From the NCBI RefSeq assembly GCF_007741475.1, contig NZ_CP036261.1, forward strand, positions 6,201,798-6,265,797: DNA of 64,000 bases, in the 5' to 3' direction. Numbering within the stretch: position 1 is the first letter of the stretch; each line of letters opens with the position of its first letter. This DNA comes from Rosistilla ulvae (lineage in GTDB: Bacteria; Planctomycetota; Planctomycetia; Pirellulales; Pirellulaceae). Made by a program: the position numbers and the translations under genes. Shown in pieces: positions 53,460 through 61,685 of this stretch. A model generated the notes under the pieces. The model had not been told where the DNA came from, searched no databases, and saw only the letters and a list, made by a program, of their open reading frames with translations.

Positions 53460-54890
53460 ATGGGATTGTCCCGTATCGGAACTTATCGGATGTTGGGAGT
53501 CGCGATTTTAGCGATTCTGTCAATAAATTGGGGATTCGCCCAAGATAGTCTGCTGCGCACCAACCCCAGCTTTGGTGGTTCGGCTGGCGTTCCCAGCACA
53601 AATCTTGTTCCGGTTCCCTCGACCTCCGCCAACGCGTTGCAGAGTCCGCCGTATCCGCAAACCGTCGCGCCGACGCTGCCACCCAATACGCAACCGATCG
53701 CACCGCCAGCCGCTTCGCTAGGGCCGCCTCAGTTCGATCCCTATCAAGCTCAACCGAACAACAACCCGATGTCGGGATTTTTTGGCGGCGCGTACAACCC
53801 CGCGCCAACCGCCGGTCCGATCGGGTACCCAACGACGCCAACGCCCTACGGAGCCCAACCGGCTTCGCCCTACGGGGCCGCCCCGGCTCCGTCGCCCTAT
53901 CCATCCCCTTACCCAACTCAGGGAGCAAGCGCTCCGCTGGGCCAAGCGGGAGGAGCCTATCCGTCGTCGGTTTATCCTGGCACCGCTCCGCCGGTACTGT
54001 TTCCAGGCGGGCTGAATTGGAATGTTCCCGCCCCCAACATGCAGGGCTGGAATCCATCGGGATCGATGTTCGACGCGGGGCAAGGATCGTTTCAGTTCCT
54101 GCAGGGCCCGCGGTTTCGGCAAGCCTGGGTCAGCGGCAATGACTCTCCCGAATCGTTGGATATTCTGGACAGCGATTTTTCGCTCGCCCTCAACTGGCCG
54201 AATTTTCTGGGCAGCTTTCAGCCTCTATACATTTTGCCTTCGTTTTCGCTGCACCAATGGCAGGGACCCAATAGTTCCACCGGTGCCGATCTGCCGTCGA
54301 AGGCTTACAGTGCGTTTATCGACGTCGGCTGGCAGAGCGATCCGAACTTGATGTTTGGAACCGAGCTAGGGCTTCGCACCGGGGTCTTCACCGATTTCGA
54401 AACGTTTAACGACAATAGTTTTCGGATCATGGGCCAGGCGCTGGCGAAGCTGAGGATCACGCCCGCGACGACGCTCAAGCTGGGGGTTTATTACATCGAT
54501 CGAAACGAGGTCAAAATTATTCCAGCCGGCGGTTTCCTGTGGCAGCCGACCCCGCATTCCCGCTGGGATATCTTCTTTCCGCTTCCCAAGTTGTCGCATT
54601 ACCTGACGACCGTGGGGACGCAGGACATTTGGTGGTACTTGTCAGCCGAATATGGCGGCGGCAGTTGGACCGTGACTCGAGCCGACGGCGCCGAGGATTC
54701 GATCGACATTAACGACATCCGCGTGATGATAGGGCTCGAATGGGGCCGCAGCGACCTGATTAAATCGGGCCGCCGGATCGGATTTTTCGAAGCCGGTTTT
54801 GTCTTCGACCGCGAGCTCGACTACCGCTACTCACCCGACGACATCGACAACAACGATACCTTCGTGTTGCGAGCCGGTTTCGGGTACTGA
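53460..54890 (+). CDS. Proline-rich outer-membrane-type beta-barrel protein
   Basis: 476 residues from the ATG at 53460, preceded by GAGGGAG; an in-frame upstream start at 53379 gives 27 more residues. Signal peptide (MLGVAILAILSINWGFA), then ~200 residues rich in Pro/Gly/Ala/Tyr with Pro-Tyr-Gly-Ala-type repeats, then a C-terminal ~250-residue aromatic-rich region with alternating strands ending in Phe-Gly-Tyr (VLRAGFGY), which suits a barrel with a C-terminal aromatic. Planctomycete outer-membrane proteins have this build. Function unknown. Confidence 0.75.
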   Translation: MGLSRIGTYRMLGVAILAILSINWGFAQDSLLRTNPSFGGSAGVPSTNLVPVPSTSANALQSPPYPQTVAPTLPPNTQPIAPPAASLGPPQFDPYQAQPNNNPMSGFFGGAYNPAPTAGPIGYPTTPTPYGAQPASPYGAAPAPSPYPSPYPTQGASAPLGQAGGAYPSSVYPGTAPPVLFPGGLNWNVPAPNMQGWNPSGSMFDAGQGSFQFLQGPRFRQAWVSGNDSPESLDILDSDFSLALNWPNFLGSFQPLYILPSFSLHQWQGPNSSTGADLPSKAYSAFIDVGWQSDPNLMFGTELGLRTGVFTDFETFNDNSFRIMGQALAKLRITPATTLKLGVYYIDRNEVKIIPAGGFLWQPTPHSRWDIFFPLPKLSHYLTTVGTQDIWWYLSAEYGGGSWTVTRADGAEDSIDINDIRVMIGLEWGRSDLIKSGRRIGFFEAGFVFDRELDYRYSPDDIDNNDTFVLRAGFGY

Positions 54891-55508
54891 GCAGGTCGTG
54901 TTGTATTTCGCCGCATCACCGCGCGTGCCGCGCTGGAGTAAAGGCTTCAGTCGACCGCGCGAAGGAGGCTTAGCCGCGGATGCGGCGATCGCATAAAGCC
55001 TGTCGCGCGAGCCACAGGATCGCATCCCGCAATCCATGTCAAAGCCCCGGCAGGGGGCCCCGCAAGCAGCAAGCGACCGCCGACATCCATTGCAATTCCG
55101 CCCTCGATTGCAAAGATCTCATCATCAGGCCGCCAATCTCGGCAACGCACGTAAGCCCCCCCACAAAGAACAAACAGTCGACAACGCCAACTTTCAAACC
55201 CAGCAAATCCCAGCCAGCCCCGGCGTCGGCCCCCGGAGCGAGTTGGGTTTGTCAGCAAAAAAACGCCGTGTAGGCTTTCGGGTTACTTTCTCCATCCTAT
55301 TTTTTTTGGGTCACCGGTGTTGTCAACGAACGAGCGAGCCGGGATTTGCGGTGTGACAAGTGGATTCTCCATCGCCCGAACGATGCCCAAACGCACGCAT
55401 CGCCTCCAATCGAAGCGACACCGTTACACCGAGACAATGCCGACCAAGACGAATAACGCCAGCTTTTTACATCGGCAAACCCCAATGTATTGAAAACGCC
55501 TAAGCGTT
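54891..55508. other. Intergenic region left of the IetAS-like module
   Basis: No gene was recognised. It holds the left 47-bp inverted repeat (54972-55018). Frames on either strand show no family resemblance. Codon-like structure is weak, and the region is the 3' side of the protease gene. Confidence 0.55.
54972..55018. repeat. Left copy of 47-bp inverted repeat flanking the IetAS-like module
   Basis: Its reverse complement matches 59841-59887 with 40 of 47 bases identical and no gap; the core caggctttatgcgatcgccgc (21 bp) is identical. The two copies are about 4.87 kb apart in opposite orientation. Confidence 0.85.
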
Positions 55509-58031
55509 TTACAACGTCGCGACGGAGACTTCGTTTACTAGCTCGCTATACAGATCCGCGGTAACGGATGGAGCCGACAACGAAACGACTAGGCTGTAGC
55601 GGGCTGTGCTCTCGACCTGTCCAAGATGCTTTCGTTCGCGCCACCATCCCGTGGTTGGATAAACGATGATCTCGCCGGAAGACGCCAGTTCCGCGGCGGT
55701 TCCTGTCCACCAATCGCTGTGCAAAGATCCGCGAGTGCGCCCCTGGCTACCGATCACCCACCGATCTGACAGCCCGGCAAAATCGCCGGACTTTAAATCT
55801 TTCTTCTCACTGTTGTACTGAGCGACTAAGCGTTCGGTGGTAACCGTCGGGGATTTGACATCGAAACGTAGGCCGTGGCTGGCGTACCTAAAGGAGTCGC
55901 CCCAACCGCGTCGCCCAGGAGATGGTTCAATAAAGTACGAAAGGGTCACCCGCATCTCTACATCAACAGATCCAAGTTGGTTCAGCGTGCGGGTTGGCCA
56001 GGGGAGACGATGCAGGTGCATTTGATTGGCTTTGGCCTTTTTGTCCGATGCATCCATACGAAATGGCTGAAGTTCTCCTTCGTAAATCAAATTCAGTTTA
56101 TTCTTCAGGCTGTATCTCGCTCGATCGAGGTCTGGACGCCCGTAGCCAAAATGACGAAGCCGGGTTTGGAATTCGGTCTTCGTTGTGGCTGGAACTTGTT
56201 TTTTGGAACCACGATCCCATTCCGCCGTATGCACCATAACGGCTCGGATGGTTTCAGGCCAAAGATCCGGGTACTCGTTCCAGAGCCTAGCGGCCATACC
56301 GCTAACCGCTGCTGTCGCAGGACTGGTGTCTCGTGTGACAGTGACAAGCCGACCGCTTGTCGGATCAAGACATGTCGTTAGAAGTCCCAAACCCTCTAGG
56401 TCGCAAGCTCGCCCGCTATCGTCTTTTGCCCAATTGCCACCCTCAAAAACGAGGTCGGGCTTCAGGGGCCATTGCTGTTGCTTCTGGTCTATCCAAGTGT
56501 TTGACGTTCGGCTGGTTGGGCTTAGCTGTCCGGGACGTGCGATTGGAATATGCTTATCAAAGCCTGGTCCACAATCGACTTTATCAGTAACCGCTCCGAT
56601 TGTTATTGCATTCCAGCTTTGCCCTGGATCTTCGATGCCGAATTCGGGCCGTTCGATCATCGGGTAGTTCATTGTCGGGTCAGCAATTTCCTCTCGGAGA
56701 TTTCCTCCCGCTACGAAGAGCAGTTGCTGACCAAGATTCCGGTCGATTGTTTGATCCGCATTGATCCTGACCCCGGCTGCAATCTGGTCAAGGCTCGCAG
56801 ACCATGAAGATGGTAAGGCGCCCTCACGGGGATCACCCGTGGTGGACGTGATACAAATCGCCCTCTTCCGCGACGGTTCAATGCTCTGCAGCCGACCAAC
56901 TGCCTCCGATGTCATTTCCCCAAACAAGTCCGTTCGATCTTCGTCAGACGGACCGACTAAACGCATGCTTTCCAAGACAATTGGTGCCGGTGGAGGTGAC
57001 TCCCCGAGCATGACTGGCGTTAGGTCGCTGTAAGCCGCGATTCCCGCCATCGCTGTTCCGTGTTGTTCGCCACTATCTGCCTCCGACCAAGCGGGATCAA
57101 TGGTGCCGACACACCTTTGATCAACGAATGGTTTTAACAGCGGGTGCCCAGAACGGATGCCGGTGTCGAGCAGGCTGACTGCTGCGGAATCCGCCGATGG
57201 TGGCGAAAGGACGTCGGCCAAATCGTGAGCGAACTCGGCCGACTCACGCGGCTGTAAATCGTCGAAATCGGCCGCGATAGATTTACCGGCCCGAAGTTCT
57301 GCGACCGGCAACAACAACAATGGGCTCGACTGCCAAAGCTCGATCGCACCACGCACAAGCAACACAACACGTTCGGGAAATCGAGTCACCCGCAAGTTTG
57401 TTGGTAACGTGAATCCGGCTAAAGCGGCTGCCTGTGTAAATTCTTCCAGAGTGGTTGGTTGCGTTGTACTTTCCGCGTGCAATTCCTCAAGCCAAACTTC
57501 CCACCAAATGTCGGTGCCCGGCACGGGCAGTGGTCTAGCGTCTGTCCAAAGGTCTTCTCTAATGGTAGCCGAGATGGCGTCGATCCTTGCTACGAGAGGC
57601 TCTCCCTTTGGGCGAGAGCCTGGGTCATTGGGGTCGTTGTTCTTCGTTTCGTAACGAGCCAAGACGTTGTCAACGACCTTGAATTTCTTGATCGGTAGAG
57701 AGACCACCACTCGCCAACCGGATTCGTCTTTGTGCGCACTACGGATGCGAATTTTCGATGATGAGCGGTCTAGACTATCGAGAACATCATCCGCATCCTC
57801 AGTCAGTTGGTAGGTGATCAAACACCGTCCGGTTTCATCAATAGCGCCCCGATTTGTGATCTCGTCACTGGCTGCCTTTAACTGGCCGCGTAGCTTGGCG
57901 GCATGCGTCTTTCGTTCACGCCCCGGAACGTTGTATTCACCACCACCCCCACCGCCATACGCGGTAAATGACAGCTCGAGCGTACTATCAAGAATCCGAA
58001 GATGGCGAAGCGGTTCGTTGGCGGGCGGCAT
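55509..58031 (-). CDS. ietS: Subtilisin-like (S8) serine protease, IetS-type defence effector
   Basis: 840 residues. An N-terminal ~280-residue extension, then a peptidase S8 domain with the full triad: Asp289 in VSLLDTGIRSGHP, His324 in SGEQHGTAMAG, Ser570 in VTRDTSPATAAVSG, plus the oxyanion Asn444 in FVAGGNLRE. No signal peptide, so it is cytoplasmic. A C-terminal beta-rich region follows. The gene lies directly downstream of the AAA+ ATPase gene with ~44 bp of overlap. Known: S8 protease plus AAA ATPase pairs of this layout are the IetAS anti-phage system. Inference: the ATPase controls the protease during infection. Base usage looks less GC-biased than flanking genes. Confidence 0.85.
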   Translation of the reverse strand: MPPANEPLRHLRILDSTLELSFTAYGGGGGGEYNVPGRERKTHAAKLRGQLKAASDEITNRGAIDETGRCLITYQLTEDADDVLDSLDRSSSKIRIRSAHKDESGWRVVVSLPIKKFKVVDNVLARYETKNNDPNDPGSRPKGEPLVARIDAISATIREDLWTDARPLPVPGTDIWWEVWLEELHAESTTQPTTLEEFTQAAALAGFTLPTNLRVTRFPERVVLLVRGAIELWQSSPLLLLPVAELRAGKSIAADFDDLQPRESAEFAHDLADVLSPPSADSAAVSLLDTGIRSGHPLLKPFVDQRCVGTIDPAWSEADSGEQHGTAMAGIAAYSDLTPVMLGESPPPAPIVLESMRLVGPSDEDRTDLFGEMTSEAVGRLQSIEPSRKRAICITSTTGDPREGALPSSWSASLDQIAAGVRINADQTIDRNLGQQLLFVAGGNLREEIADPTMNYPMIERPEFGIEDPGQSWNAITIGAVTDKVDCGPGFDKHIPIARPGQLSPTSRTSNTWIDQKQQQWPLKPDLVFEGGNWAKDDSGRACDLEGLGLLTTCLDPTSGRLVTVTRDTSPATAAVSGMAARLWNEYPDLWPETIRAVMVHTAEWDRGSKKQVPATTKTEFQTRLRHFGYGRPDLDRARYSLKNKLNLIYEGELQPFRMDASDKKAKANQMHLHRLPWPTRTLNQLGSVDVEMRVTLSYFIEPSPGRRGWGDSFRYASHGLRFDVKSPTVTTERLVAQYNSEKKDLKSGDFAGLSDRWVIGSQGRTRGSLHSDWWTGTAAELASSGEIIVYPTTGWWRERKHLGQVESTARYSLVVSLSAPSVTADLYSELVNEVSVATL

Positions 58032-59034
58032 CGCAAGTGCTAGTCATGGGTGATCGGACGGCAGACCGCTCCATCAGGCAGTCCAGAAGGTTGCCAATCT
58101 TAATGCATTTTCCACCACTTAGCACGATCTGGCGGGCGGCCGCCTCTGCGGATGCAACGATGTCCGCGTGGCTTAAACCGGTCGATGCATGCTCGATGAC
58201 TTCCCAGTCGTCAATTGATAGTGTGAAAGCCGATAAACGATTCTCAATGAGGTTCCGCGCGTCGCCCGGTTCCGGTAAGGCGTAATGCATGATCGCATCA
58301 AAACGCCGATGCAACGCATGGTCTAGTAACGACAGTAGGTTTGTTGCCGCTACGACAAATCCCTGACCATCGTAGCGTTCCAGAAATTGCAAGAATGAAT
58401 TCAGAACACGCCTGACCTCACCGACGTCGCCGGACGCGTCTCGAACAGCTCCGATCGCGTCAAACTCGTCGAAGAGGTAGACACCAGGGCTTTGTCCCAT
58501 CACCTCAAAGATCTGGAACAATCGTGTTGCCGTTTCACCCAAGTATCGACTCATGAGCGAATGTAATTGCACTTCGATCAACGGCAGTTTGCACTGCCCG
58601 GCAAGAGCGGCAGCGGTCATTGTCTTCCCACAACCCGGCGGACCTACCAATAGCAGGCGTCTTCGCGGCGTCAAACCATGTGCTTCCAATGCGTCTCGGT
58701 CGCGATACTCTTTGACTAACGTTTCCAACATTTGCCGATGCCGATCCGCGAGCACCATGTCTGCGAGTTTCGTGTTTGGATAGCTGGCGACGACCAGCTC
58801 TTCAAGCGACTCGGGTGGTTTCGAGATAGGGACCGCTCTGGCTCGGCCCGCCGTCGGTGACGTCACGGGTTGACGAGGCATTGTCTCGATCATCTCTCGA
58901 AGCTGGTCTGCCAGACGCTGTTGCCCTTTCTTTGCTGCAGAGGCCGCAATCTGCATCGCCACCGACCGAAATCGGGCGTCATCACCCGATCCGTAGCTGT
59001 CGATGAGTGCTTTGATTTGCGTTGCTGTGGCCAA
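57988..59034 (-). CDS. ietA: AAA+ ATPase, IetA-type defence component
   Basis: About 348 residues from TTG 59034 (LATATQIKALIDSYGSGDDARF); the frame is open to ATGs at 59130 and 59184, but those residues do not look protein-like. Helical N-terminal region (~1-80), then AAA+ core: Walker A GPPGCGKT (131-138), Walker B VYLFDEFDAI (186-195), sensor-1 Asn in VVAATN (232), arginine finger in HRRFD (243-244). The N-terminal pattern QIKALIDSYGSGDDARFRSVAMQIAASAAKKG is what I remember for IetA-like proteins. It is the first gene of the module. Its 3' end overlaps the protease start. Confidence 0.85.
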   Translation of the reverse strand: MATATQIKALIDSYGSGDDARFRSVAMQIAASAAKKGQQRLADQLREMIETMPRQPVTSPTAGRARAVPISKPPESLEELVVASYPNTKLADMVLADRHRQMLETLVKEYRDRDALEAHGLTPRRRLLLVGPPGCGKTMTAAALAGQCKLPLIEVQLHSLMSRYLGETATRLFQIFEVMGQSPGVYLFDEFDAIGAVRDASGDVGEVRRVLNSFLQFLERYDGQGFVVAATNLLSLLDHALHRRFDAIMHYALPEPGDARNLIENRLSAFTLSIDDWEVIEHASTGLSHADIVASAEAAARQIVLSGGKCIKIGNLLDCLMERSAVRSPMTSTCDAARQRTASPSSDS

Positions 59035-59184
59035 TGAAACAATTGTGTAAGAGTTAAGTGAAGGGGGCTCGGAACGAGCCCCCTGGCCGTTTAAACCAAA
59101 TTTCTCTAGTGAGCGTCTAGATCGCAACATATTCCGCCCCACAGAATAGTGCGTCTGTCGTCGCTGCGACACTGGCTCTATCAT

Positions 59185-60092
59185 AGCGAAAACCGACCAT
59201 TACAGCACGAAATCGCCTGAGACGTTGGAATCGCATGCGGAACCTCGCATAGTTGCCTTGTTTACCGCATTGGCTTCGGACGTTTGCGTCTGACGGTTTG
59301 ACGACCATCCGCCAGGAACTTTTTGGTCGAGCGTATGCTGGTCGCCTCGTATTGTGATTTGTAGCAGGACAGAATGTCCCCCAATCCGGCTCCTGGGAAG
59401 CCAGGCATTTTCCGATTCGTCACCACGCGATGCGGCCTATGGCGTTGTCGATGCGGTCACGATTGGGGCCTCGTGTCTTCCGGCGGGGATTGCTCCATGG
59501 GTTGAGTTCGTCGATGGTGCGGCGTTGGTTTCGAATTCGTTCTCCGTGAATCCCTTGCGATCCGAGCACGCTCGCAAGCGTTTCACCAGCGCTGCTTGCA
59601 TGCTCCGTTGGCGGACACCGAAGTGAGTTTCAGTCGTACCGGTGGCCGACGGCGGTGCTCTTCGTTTTTGCCTGCTCGACCATGGGGCTGGAGGCAGTCG
59701 AGGCGACTTGAGCGTGTCGCGTCACTTCGTGGCGGGCATCGACAGAGGCGTTTGGCGCTGGGGGGCTCCTGGCGGAACGGCGTTTCCAAGGTACGCATGG
59801 CGCACTCGGATGCTCCTCAAAGTTGGCGCTGTCTTGTTGTCCTGCGGCTTGCATTGCAGGCTTTATGCGATCGCCGCCTCCGCGGCTTTTCTAACCGTTT
59901 TATGGGCCCCAAAAACTCAGGCCACCTCGAACCTGGCCAATCGACGCGCGGGGCGTTGCCCACGCGGTTAAACGCAATACCGTCCACTACATCCCGCCGC
60001 TAATTCTTGCGACGGTCCGCAGCTCCTTCGTTGAACTGTATTGCGGTTAAACGAGAAGACGACGTGTTACCTCTGCCTGCCCCCTGCGGGGA
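59185..60092. other. Long non-coding-looking region right of the IetAS-like module
   Basis: About 900 bp upstream of the ATPase gene and downstream of the sulfatase gene, without a recognisable gene. Short frames at ~59350-59640 and ~59590-60000 resemble nothing I know. It contains the right 47-bp inverted-repeat copy (59841-59887) and the promoter of the defence operon should be close to 59040-59200. Confidence 0.5.
59841..59887. repeat. Right copy of 47-bp inverted repeat flanking the IetAS-like module
   Basis: Matches the reverse complement of 54972-55018 at 40 of 47 positions, including 21 consecutive identical bases. Located ~800 bp upstream of the ATPase start. Confidence 0.85.
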
Positions 60093-61685
60093 TCAGCGCG
60101 GGCGGCGTTCTTCCACCCAGCCTTGGATAGGCACGCGGTCCAGATGCTCCTTGGCCCACTGAGGTTTGGGGAACCAACGCAGCGGGCTGACGCGGGGGTA
60201 CATTTCCCAGATGTCGCCGCCGTCGATCTGCCGCGCGTCGCCTGTCGTTTCCAGATGCTGCGTCAATCGCTGGTGAAGCTCCTTGCGGACGCTCTCAAAT
60301 TCGGGGTCGGTCGCCAAGTTGTTCAAGCAATCGGGATCCCTTTGGATGTCGAACAGCTCCTCCCCCGGCCGCAGGTCGACTGACAGCCCCAGGAACTTGC
60401 CAAGCTTGGGATCGTCCCGTTTTTCGATCAAAAAATCCAAAGCGGGACAGGCATCGATGTCGTGGTAACCGCCGTGGGCGTCCCCAAGTTGGGTATCGAC
60501 TGGATTGCCAGCGGCATCGTAGGTGACGCTGTCAAATTTCTGAGCCGGGCCGGCCGGCAGCCGCTCGGGGCGGAAGTTGCGGATGTAAAGGTACTGATGC
60601 GTGCGGATCGCCCGCTGCGGGTAGCCGAGCGAATTGTAACGCGACGAGGAATGGCGCTCGCGAGCGCTGAAGACCTCGGTCCGCTGCGGTTCGATGATCC
60701 CCGATTTTTCGGACTTCAGCATCGCTAGCATGCTTTTGCCCGAGAGCGGCTTGGCTGGCGGCGGCGCGACGCCGCTCGCTTCGTAGATCGTGGCGGCGAT
60801 GTCGACGAATCCGACGAGATCGTCGCTCGTTCGCCCCCCAGGGAAGTGCCCCTGCCATGAGATTGCTAGCGGAACGTGGATGCCGTGCTCGTAACAGTTC
60901 GCCTTGGCGCGTGGAAACGGCATGCCATTGTCGCTGGTGACGATGAAGATCGTGTTCTCAAACTCGCCCGCGTCGCGGATCATCTGCAACATCGCGGCGC
61001 AATCGTCGTCGAAGCGTTCGACTTCAAACGCGTAGTCGAGCAGATCGCTGCGGATCTCGGGAGCGTCGGGCAGGTAGCCGGGAACCTCCGCTTGTTCCAG
61101 CTTCATCCCTTTTTCCAGCCCCGAACCGAACTTGTAGGGGCGGTGAGCGTCGGTGCTGCCGAACCAGAAACAGAACGGTTGGCCATCGGGCCGCTGCTCG
61201 AGGAAGGTGCGAAAACCGGCGGCGTAGCGAGATTCACCCTTGGTCGGCTTGGCTTTAAATTTGGGGCCACACGGGTCGCGTGTGCCGCCGAGGGCTTTCC
61301 AGTCCCCCGGCGCCCAGCCCTTGCCGGTGTGCCCGACGAAGTAGCCGGCGTCGGCCAGTCGGATGGGAAAGGTCTCGTATTCGGGGGCGAAGTAGCTGGC
61401 ATGGGTTCCGGCGTGTTCGATCATCCAGGTCTGTCGGCCTGTCAAAAACGCGGCTCGCGAGGGGCTGCAGCCGGGGCTGGGGCAGATCGCGTTGTTGAAC
61501 AGCACTCCCTGCTTGGCGATCGCGTCAAACGTCGGCGTGGAGACCATTTTTGATCCGTAAGCCGACGCATGGGGCCAGGAGATGTCATCGCTTATCAAGA
61601 CCATGACGTTGGGGCGGTCGGCGGCGGACGCAAATTGGCAGGCCAGCAGCAGGCAGCAGGCCAGTGGGGGCAAAACTCGCTTCAT
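60093..61685 (-). CDS. Secreted sulfatase (alkaline-phosphatase superfamily)
   Basis: 530 residues from the ATG at 61685; signal peptide (VLPPLACCLLLACQFASAA). The N-terminal metal-binding DD (33-34) in NVMVLISDDISWPH, the maturation/active-site motif CSPSR (Cys73, C-x-P-S-R type, converted to formylglycine), TGRQTW, HTGKGWAPGDWK and IVTSDNGMPFPRAKAN are typical. Hydrolyses a sulfate ester, probably from a marine polysaccharide. Substrate unknown. No anaerobic sulfatase-maturase gene is near. Confidence 0.95.
   Translation of the reverse strand: MKRVLPPLACCLLLACQFASAADRPNVMVLISDDISWPHASAYGSKMVSTPTFDAIAKQGVLFNNAICPSPGCSPSRAAFLTGRQTWMIEHAGTHASYFAPEYETFPIRLADAGYFVGHTGKGWAPGDWKALGGTRDPCGPKFKAKPTKGESRYAAGFRTFLEQRPDGQPFCFWFGSTDAHRPYKFGSGLEKGMKLEQAEVPGYLPDAPEIRSDLLDYAFEVERFDDDCAAMLQMIRDAGEFENTIFIVTSDNGMPFPRAKANCYEHGIHVPLAISWQGHFPGGRTSDDLVGFVDIAATIYEASGVAPPPAKPLSGKSMLAMLKSEKSGIIEPQRTEVFSARERHSSSRYNSLGYPQRAIRTHQYLYIRNFRPERLPAGPAQKFDSVTYDAAGNPVDTQLGDAHGGYHDIDACPALDFLIEKRDDPKLGKFLGLSVDLRPGEELFDIQRDPDCLNNLATDPEFESVRKELHQRLTQHLETTGDARQIDGGDIWEMYPRVSPLRWFPKPQWAKEHLDRVPIQGWVEERRPR

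What the first reader, a model, noticed from the sequence alone, without database searches (positions are those of the whole stretch)
55509..59034. IetAS-like anti-phage module: AAA+ ATPase plus S8 protease in an apparent genomic island
Seen: two overlapping minus-strand genes, an ATPase with intact Walker A/B and arginine finger, then an 840-residue cytoplasmic S8 protease with a complete Asp289/His324/Ser570 triad. Known: the IetAS defence system pairs an AAA ATPase with a subtilisin-like protease. Inference: this planctomycete pair is an IetAS homologue or a divergent relative, probably acquired; it is bounded by inverted repeats and lies between unrelated housekeeping genes. The long N-terminal (~280 aa) extension of the protease may carry the sensing or partner-binding function.
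Basis: partly seen in the sequence, partly recalled or inferred. Interest (0 to 1): 0.78.

Follow-up and report, generated by a model that had tools for sequence, protein, structure and literature searches.

The report
Planctomycete IetAS/SgiAT-type protease–ATPase pair
A bacterium, probably a relative of Pirellula, appears to have imported a two-gene module, a protein-cutting enzyme and the ATPase that probably restrains it; pairs like this are already known as toxin–antitoxin and anti-phage systems, and lone copies of the ATPase in viral DNA hint that phages may use it to disarm the system.

Summary
In detail: IetS (55509-58031, minus, 840 aa, S8 triad D289/H324/S570) and IetA (57988-59034, minus, 348 aa, classic AAA ATPase) overlap by 44 bp. 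PADLOC places both in IetS/IetA; the NCBIfam cut-offs for the anti-phage equivalogs are not met (205 of 510 bits; 46 of 900). The pair is accessory and imported: 1 of 3 held genomes of the genus has it; a genome of another genus has it at 94-96% protein identity in unrelated surroundings; at the same locus one sister genome carries an NsnA-like (GmrSD_N) module, another a transposase. The 48-nt inverted repeats there are a dispersed repeat; a different 20-bp inverted repeat bounds the slot. My data fit: in viral contigs IetS was not seen without IetA (0 of 45 loci with room), whereas IetA was seen without full IetS (9 of 49; deduplicated 0/42 against 7/44, p = 0.012). Best reading: an IetA-restrained proteolytic toxin, released on infection. 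Anti-phage activity of this copy is untested. Known kind; the new lead is orphan IetA in viral contigs.

The parts
57988..59034 (-). IetA-like AAA ATPase, 348 aa, TTG start; predicted 3-helix N-terminal bundle (residues 4-51), AAA core, C-terminal helices; predicted antitoxin/restrainer
55509..58031 (-). IetS-like S8 (subtilisin-type) protease, 840 aa, probably cytoplasmic; predicted toxin/effector
57988..58031 (-). 44-bp overlap of the ietA 3' end with the ietS 5' end; also 44 bp in the G140 copy (L048)
57195..58031 (-). IetS N-terminal region, residues 1-279; fast-diverging (mean pairwise identity 22-27% against 41-42% elsewhere)
56112..57194 (-). IetS S8 catalytic domain, residues 280-640 (D289, H324, N444, S570)
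55512..56111 (-). IetS C-terminal domain, residues 641-840, as conserved as the catalytic domain (15 invariant of 200 columns; S8 25 of 361)
55241..59638 (.). imported 4398-bp insert (GC 54.8% against 59.5% in the 10 kb on the left and 61.0% on the right)
55066..55240 (.). left inner flank, one copy here, 89% identical to one copy in sister genome G072
59639..59841 (.). right inner flank, one copy here, 84% identical to one copy in sister genome G072
55216..55235 (.). left arm of the 20-bp inverted repeat at the slot boundary (partner 59640-59659, 17 of 20 paired)
59640..59659 (.). right arm of the slot-boundary inverted repeat
59274..59569 (-). eroded similarity to the 170-aa open reading frame (no Pfam or PADLOC match) that stands upstream of ietA in the G140 copy

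Best explanation
The pair is a horizontally acquired IetAS/SgiAT-type proteolytic toxin-antitoxin module. IetS is a cytoplasmic subtilase whose activity harms the cell (inferred from homologues). IetA, a ring-forming AAA ATPase of the protein-threading type (inferred from motifs and fold), binds IetS and keeps it inactive. When infection or another invader disturbs IetA, or stops its synthesis, IetS is released, cleaves host and/or invader proteins and aborts the infection; the same logic stabilises mobile elements. Shown here: the gene pair, intact active-site residues, tight pairing, co-inheritance, import, purifying selection, and a one-way dependence of IetS on IetA in the loci sampled. 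Inferred: toxicity of this copy, restraint by IetA, phage trigger, targets.
For: Family: IetA 2.7e-73 and IetS 1.4e-27. Pairing: 45 of 49 viral-contig IetS loci have IetA directly upstream (spacing -23 to +51 nt, measured to the first IetS piece where IetS is interrupted); the other four have no room (three cut by the contig edge, one 250 nt from it). In 12 of 12 bacterial loci with near-full IetS, IetA is present (about 1.7 kb away in L055; IetS interrupted in L056 and cut by the contig end in L054). Co-inheritance: tree-distance correlation 0.82 over 55 core pairs, best of 2000 permutations 0.20. Asymmetry: IetS without IetA 0 of 45; IetA without full IetS 9 of 49 proper IetA loci with room, four more with a short IetS; after merging copies at 95% DNA identity 0 of 42 against 7 of 44, Fisher p = 0.012. 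Literature, passages seen: the S8 protein is the toxin and the AAA ATPase the antitoxin in SGI1 (PMC5006074, which also reports that all SgiT relatives it found lie next to SgiA, 187 against 412) and in Mycoplasma (PMC8562856, PMC6755753). PMC11878078 ties an IetAS-bearing Pf phage to phage resistance, lists IetAS among TA strategies and calls its mechanism unknown. Mobility: 485 of 72,556 plasmid records hold a relative. Hotspot: the same slot holds an NsnA-like gene in G072.
Against: No functional data for this copy. IetS is 27-44% identical to relatives outside its own lineage, and the NCBIfam cut-offs are not met. Whether pTiC58 IetS and SgiT fall in the same clade was not tested with their sequences. 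IetA keeps a canonical pore loop (R163-Y164-L165-G166), more than a mere inhibitor would seem to need. The asymmetry rests on two overlapping scans of one collection with at most 5 kb of flank, so a partner elsewhere in those genomes would be missed; pairing was not surveyed in the 485 plasmid records; two IetS C-terminal fragments without IetA (L018, L027) lie close to contig ends, and in L181 an IS element separates a short S8 gene from an ATP-binding gene.
Confidence: 0.55

Rival explanations
1. Two-component ATP-dependent protease: IetA recognises and unfolds a phage or host protein and feeds it into IetS, as PAN/Rpt ATPases feed the 20S proteasome; IetA is activator, not restrainer.
For: Best structural matches of the IetA model are 26S proteasome Rpt subunits, PAN, FtsH and p97; pore loop with F or Y at 164 and G at 166 in 40 of 40, Walker B and arginine pair invariant; tight pairing and co-inheritance.
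Against: In the characterised homologues the protease is toxic when the ATPase is absent (passages of PMC6755753 and PMC5006074), so IetA is not needed for activity there; the one-way pairing asymmetry is not predicted.
Confidence: 0.2
2. Pure addiction/element-stabilisation module with no role against phages, now a chromosomal passenger.
For: The SGI1 homologue helps to maintain the island and the pTiC58 one is cited as stabilising its plasmid (passages of PMC5006074 and PMC8562856); of 485 plasmid records with a relative 339 are predicted conjugative.
Against: Purifying selection between copies in two genera; no further gene recognised in the insert (ORF list only); the slot holds a defence-type gene in a sister genome; an IetAS homologue is linked to phage resistance (PMC11878078, passages); lone IetA genes lie near phage head and packaging genes.
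Confidence: 0.2
3. Housekeeping or maturation protease with a chaperone ATPase, unrelated to conflict.
For: S8 proteases and AAA ATPases are common; one other S8 gene exists in this genome.
Against: Present in 1 of 3 held genomes of the genus and near full length in 11 of 199 of the family, this one included; transferred between genera; relatives on plasmids and viral contigs.
Confidence: 0.05

Closest known systems
IetAS of plasmid pTiC58 (Yamamoto 2009; not held, known from citing papers)
   Same: AAA ATPase and subtilisin-like protease gene pair, described by citing papers as antitoxin and toxin
   Different: plasmid-borne in Agrobacterium; its sequence was not compared directly here
SgiAT of Salmonella Genomic Island 1 (PMC5006074, passages)
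   Same: gene order antitoxin then toxin; similar distance between members (SgiA and SgiT 50% and 36% identical to pTiC58 IetA and IetS as reported there; this pair is 46-52% and 34-42% identical to bacterial relatives outside its lineage); toxin reported always beside antitoxin
   Different: on an integrative mobilizable element in Gammaproteobacteria; this one is chromosomal, with no further gene recognised in the insert
Mycoplasma TA132/133 (JCVISYN2_0132/0133; PMC6755753, PMC8562856, passages)
   Same: chromosomal AAA/S8 operon (353 and 757 aa)
   Different: toxicity and neutralisation shown there, not here
IetAS/IteAS anti-phage system (PADLOC IetA/IetS; NCBIfam NF042959/NF042956)
   Same: both proteins match the family models; all 42 aligned IetS relatives match PADLOC IetS models
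   Different: scores far below the NCBIfam equivalog cut-offs
PAN/Rpt, FtsH and Cdc48/p97 ATPases
   Same: AAA core, pore loop, Walker and arginine-finger residues
   Different: predicted three-helix N-terminal bundle of about 51 residues; the best PDB profile matches begin at position 53 or later; partner is a subtilase
Subtilases with propeptide or C-terminal beta domain (ProN-Tk-SP, KP-43)
   Same: S8 fold; best Foldseek hits
   Different: sequence identity about 14%; IetS has a 279-residue N-terminal region with no Pfam match

Membership tests
IetAS / SgiAT family of AAA ATPase-S8 protease pairs | AAA ATPase gene immediately upstream of an S8 protease gene | tested here: met
   44-bp overlap, same strand; same arrangement in 45 of 49 viral loci, the other four without room
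IetAS / SgiAT family of AAA ATPase-S8 protease pairs | Sequence match to IetA and IetS profiles (PADLOC) | tested here: met
   IetA 2.7e-73, IetS 1.4e-27
IetAS / SgiAT family of AAA ATPase-S8 protease pairs | Intact active-site residues in both proteins | tested here: met
IetAS / SgiAT family of AAA ATPase-S8 protease pairs | Toxicity of the S8 partner neutralised by the AAA partner | not testable with these tools
   shown for homologues only (passages of PMC5006074, PMC8562856, PMC6755753)
IteA/IteS anti-phage equivalogs (NCBIfam NF042959, NF042956) | Score above the curated equivalog cut-off | tested here: not met
   205.4 of 510 bits and 46.2 of 900 bits; sixteen further S8 and four further AAA relatives scanned also stay below
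IteA/IteS anti-phage equivalogs (NCBIfam NF042959, NF042956) | Demonstrated anti-phage activity | not testable with these tools
   no experiment possible
Genomic island bounded by inverted repeats | Repeats specific to the island ends | tested here: inconclusive
   48-nt repeats are dispersed; a 20-bp inverted repeat at the slot ends has near copies elsewhere
Protein-threading AAA ATPases (classic clade) | Pore loop, Walker A/B, sensor-1, arginine fingers | tested here: met

The most novel reading that the evidence does not exclude
IetAS is an infection-triggered proteolytic toxin-antitoxin system, and phages have repeatedly captured its antitoxin: seven distinct IetA genes on viral contigs, falling in at least five places of the IetA tree, keep Walker A, Walker B and the arginine pair but have no full IetS beside them; four of the seven lie within about 2.5 kb of terminase, capsid or connector genes. 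These orphan IetA proteins would be counter-defence antitoxins that re-restrain the host's IetS during infection.
Probability: 0.3. Interest if true: 0.72.

Novelty: new member of a known kind. Interest (0 to 1): 0.42.

Why it matters
Two papers whose passages I read call the anti-phage mechanism of IetAS unknown (PMC11878078, which nevertheless lists IetAS among TA strategies, and PMC9958689), while related AAA/S8 pairs are described as toxin-antitoxin modules. Put together they give a concrete, testable model: a restrained protease released on infection. The orphan IetA genes in viral contigs offer a direct test, and the slot suggests that this genus exchanges such modules at one chromosomal place.

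Tried and rejected
Rejected: island ends at the 48-nt inverted repeats (dispersed family). A cassette hypothesis from the 20-bp boundary repeat: a second inverted pair lies 5.2 kb apart elsewhere in the genome, but the stretch between holds a 1299-aa frame and shares no DNA (E up to 1e-3) with the window or the two sister loci, so I do not call the repeat a transposon end. A third conserved gene: over 60 loci the largest neighbour clusters were serine-recombinase-like (10 loci) and tyrosine-integrase-like (8 loci), named by eye. A propeptide-like (I9) fold for the IetS N-terminal region: the strand-helix order of the model suggests two such units and a proenzyme is the top Foldseek hit, but no Pfam inhibitor family was among the families that matched any of 42 members; left open. 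The viral structure library gave general S8 proteins as its best hits. No Rfam family in 54800-60200; promoter-like hits at chance level, terminator-like 9 against 6.2 expected. Passages of PMC10924106 and PMC9090908 were looked at and added little. Nine of 49 viral IetS loci were left out of alignment A3: L068, L081, L092, L096, L100, L103, L106, L108, L109; A4 leaves out the same and also L075 and L088.
Full report
WHAT IS THERE. Two minus-strand genes overlap by 44 bp: ietA (57988-59034, TTG, 348 aa) and ietS (55509-58031, 840 aa). IetS carries one Peptidase_S8 domain (5.3e-44, residues 283-631). Its triad D289/H324/S570 and N444 (oxyanion residue by recall) are identical in 42 of 42 aligned proteins. 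IetA is a classic AAA ATPase (8.4e-28) with Walker A, Walker B, sensor-1 and arginine-pair residues invariant in 40 of 40, and F (26) or Y (14) at pore-loop position 164 before an invariant G166 (motif names recalled). The TTG start is favoured by profile matches from residue 1, by relatives aligned at the same column and by its retention in the closest copy. That the organism is a Pirellula relative is an inference: the one named relative of IetS found is a Pirellulales genome (37% identity), and the window's housekeeping genes look planctomycete by eye.

FAMILY. PADLOC ranks IetA models first for the ATPase (2.7e-73; next non-IetA model TRIP13, 5.7e-14) and IetS models first for the protease (1.4e-27). 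NCBIfam agrees in kind (IteA 205 bits, next family 95; IteS 46) but both fall far below the cut-offs of 510 and 900. Ten S8 relatives and six S8 and four AAA relatives were also below, so these equivalogs seem to cover a narrow part of the radiation. All 42 members of the IetS alignment match PADLOC IetS models. The best profile hit of IetS to a PDB sequence is 5.4e-8 over about 50 residues. AlphaFold2 models: IetA mean pLDDT 88.4, pTM 0.74; IetS 82.2, 0.75. Foldseek places IetA with 26S proteasome Rpt subunits, PAN, FtsH and p97 and IetS with subtilases, first the proform ProN-Tk-SP, then KP-43.

IMPORTED AND ACCESSORY. A protein search found matches in 21 of 199 genomes of the family: 11 near full length (E below 1e-100, this genome included), three as C-terminal fragments at best, seven only as more distant relatives. 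In the genus 1 of 3 held genomes has it. Genome G140, of another genus, carries the pair at 94% (IetS) and 95-96% (IetA) protein identity, with 88.8% DNA identity over window 55508-59435 plus one 76-bp match just outside, and no other match (E up to 1e-10, 60 bases or more) in the 19 kb compared. For comparison, the best G140 match of the neighbouring sulfatase region is 68% over 498 bases, with a second of 80% over 80 bases, and of the other neighbour 50% protein identity. Selection is purifying (dN/dS about 0.08 and 0.09). Upstream of ietA the window keeps an eroded stretch similar to the reading frame that precedes ietA in G140.

THE SLOT. Inner flanks 55066-55240 and 59639-59841 were found once here, once in G072 and not in G006. 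Between them lie 4398 bp with ietAS in this genome and about 3.5 kb in G072, which encode a 204-aa protein (nucleotidyltransferase-like by eye only; no Pfam or PADLOC match), a GmrSD_N protein (Pfam 1.7e-25; PADLOC NsnA 9.6e-35) and a 285-aa protein without a match. G006 holds at the locus a transposase with Tn5-type domains and an array of the dispersed repeat. A 20-bp inverted repeat, found after the boundaries were known, marks the slot ends: 17 of 20 paired here, 19 of 20 in G072; 400 random pairs of 70-bp stretches of the window gave at most 15. It has near copies elsewhere (5, 1 and 3 matches with up to 2 mismatches in the three genomes, boundary copies included; control pattern 1, 0, 0), so its role is open. 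The 48-nt inverted repeats at 54972-55019 and 59840-59887 belong to a dispersed family (at least 34, 84 and 10 matches).

A FIXED TWO-GENE UNIT. A profile-guided scan of IMG/VR gave 49 loci with an IetS relative. In 45 IetA lies directly upstream (-23 to +51 nt; in L068 and L108 IetS itself is short or interrupted); the other four have no room. In 12 of 12 bacterial loci with near-full IetS, IetA is present, in L055 about 1.7 kb away. Tree distances of IetA and IetS correlate at 0.82 over 55 pairs (best of 2000 permutations 0.20), and 0.95 over 58 pairs with three distant ones (best permutation 0.59). No third gene is shared widely. Plasmid records with a relative: 485 of 72,556, of which 339 predicted conjugative. 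Phage records: 6 of 50,697, one covering at least 80% of the query, so relatives are rare among deposited phages.

TOXIN-ANTITOXIN SIGNATURE. Homologous pairs are described as toxin-antitoxin systems: in SGI1 the S8 protein is toxic and the AAA protein protects (PMC5006074, passages); in Mycoplasma removal of the ATPase gene alone was lethal and survivors carried mutations in the protease gene (PMC6755753, passages), and neutralisation was reported in M. capricolum (PMC8562856, passages). Those papers cite IetAS of pTiC58 (Yamamoto 2009, not held) as the earlier case. PMC5006074 already reported that SgiT relatives always lie beside SgiA relatives (187 against 412). I tested the same prediction on this set. 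IetS without IetA: 0 of 45. For IetA, 68 loci were found; ten have no room downstream and in five IetS is cut by the contig end; of the remaining 53, I dropped four as not IetA proper (L175 and L176 weak matches, L168 and L170 lacking the N-terminal bundle; all four have no IetS). Of the 49 left, 36 have IetS of 700 aa or more, four a short IetS, nine none. Fisher test 0/45 against 9/49 gives p = 0.003; after merging copies at 95% DNA identity it is 0/42 against 7/44, p = 0.012. The two scans share contigs, so this is indicative.

ORPHAN IetA. The nine solitary loci are seven distinct genes (L127, L129 and L130 merge). L120 keeps a 28-residue IetS remnant; no other IetS-like hit at E up to 0.01 was found in the stretches held for the seven. 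By pattern, Walker A, Walker B and the RRFD motif are present in 7 of 7, the pore-loop pattern in 6 (not L158) and AATN in 6 (not L127). L120, L123 and L127 are nearest to one group (L072, L089, L015); L114, L124, L134 and L158 fall elsewhere, so at least five places in the tree. Ten downstream genes were scanned: terminase large subunit (L114, L127), major head protein (L134), connector proteins (two in L158), a RecT-like protein (L123), a phosphoesterase (L124), a DNA methyltransferase (L120), one family of unknown function (L114) and one gene without a match (L134).

WHERE SPECIFICITY MAY LIE. Over 42 IetS proteins mean pairwise identity is 22-27% in residues 1-279 but 41% in the S8 domain and 42% in the C-terminal domain. 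Between this copy and G140's, amino-acid changes are 26 in 279 against 24 in 561 (p = 0.005) while synonymous codon changes are not enriched (52 against 119, p = 0.41). The N-terminal region is the variable part, compatible with recognition or regulation, and equally with weaker constraint.

HOW IT MOST LIKELY WORKS. IetA restrains IetS in a complex; disturbance of IetA on infection frees IetS, which cleaves cell and/or invader proteins. Shown: the parts, their intact motifs, pairing, import, selection, asymmetry in the loci sampled. From homologues: toxicity and neutralisation. Inferred: trigger, targets, and that this copy acts on phages. The main rival, IetA as unfoldase feeding IetS, fits the fold and pore loop but not the genetics of the homologues.

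NOVELTY. A new, divergent member of a known kind. The lead worth follow-up is the orphan IetA set in viral contigs. Ten literature searches were made; in the listings shown, of held open-access papers only, I saw no report of it, which does not show that none exists. Interest 0.42.

Noticed in passing
L114, L120, L123, L124, L127, L134, L158 (viral contigs): Solitary IetA genes, seven distinct ones, without a full IetS beside them, four near phage head, packaging or connector genes; candidate counter-defence antitoxins.
   Followed up: partly
L059:6132-7729 (sister genome G072, same slot as ietAS): An NsnA-like GmrSD_N gene behind a 204-aa gene occupies the slot that holds ietAS in the window: a cargo hotspot.
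   Followed up: partly
L016 and L017 (G009, G194): Internally shortened IetS frames that keep about 40 N-terminal residues and the C-terminal domain but lack the S8 domain, beside IetA (full length in L017, itself shortened in L016); the frame stays open across each deletion. Both genomes are in hundreds of contigs, so an assembly artefact is possible.
   Followed up: no
window 54972-55019 and 59840-59887: REP-like dispersed repeat family, at least 34 matches here, 84 in G006 (partly in closely spaced arrays), 10 in G072.
   Followed up: partly
window 59945-60057: A second dispersed repeat next to the sulfatase gene; most of the matches listed for the query (88, 75 and 74 in the three genomes of the genus, list cut) fall on it.
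   Followed up: no
L056:6115-8607 (G137): IetS interrupted by one TGA with IetA intact; reads as a decaying toxin beside an intact antitoxin.
   Followed up: no
L178 (Rhizobium leguminosarum plasmid pRLb1): A distant AAA/S8 pair next to genes annotated as ThiF-family adenylyltransferase and multiubiquitin domain protein.
   Followed up: no
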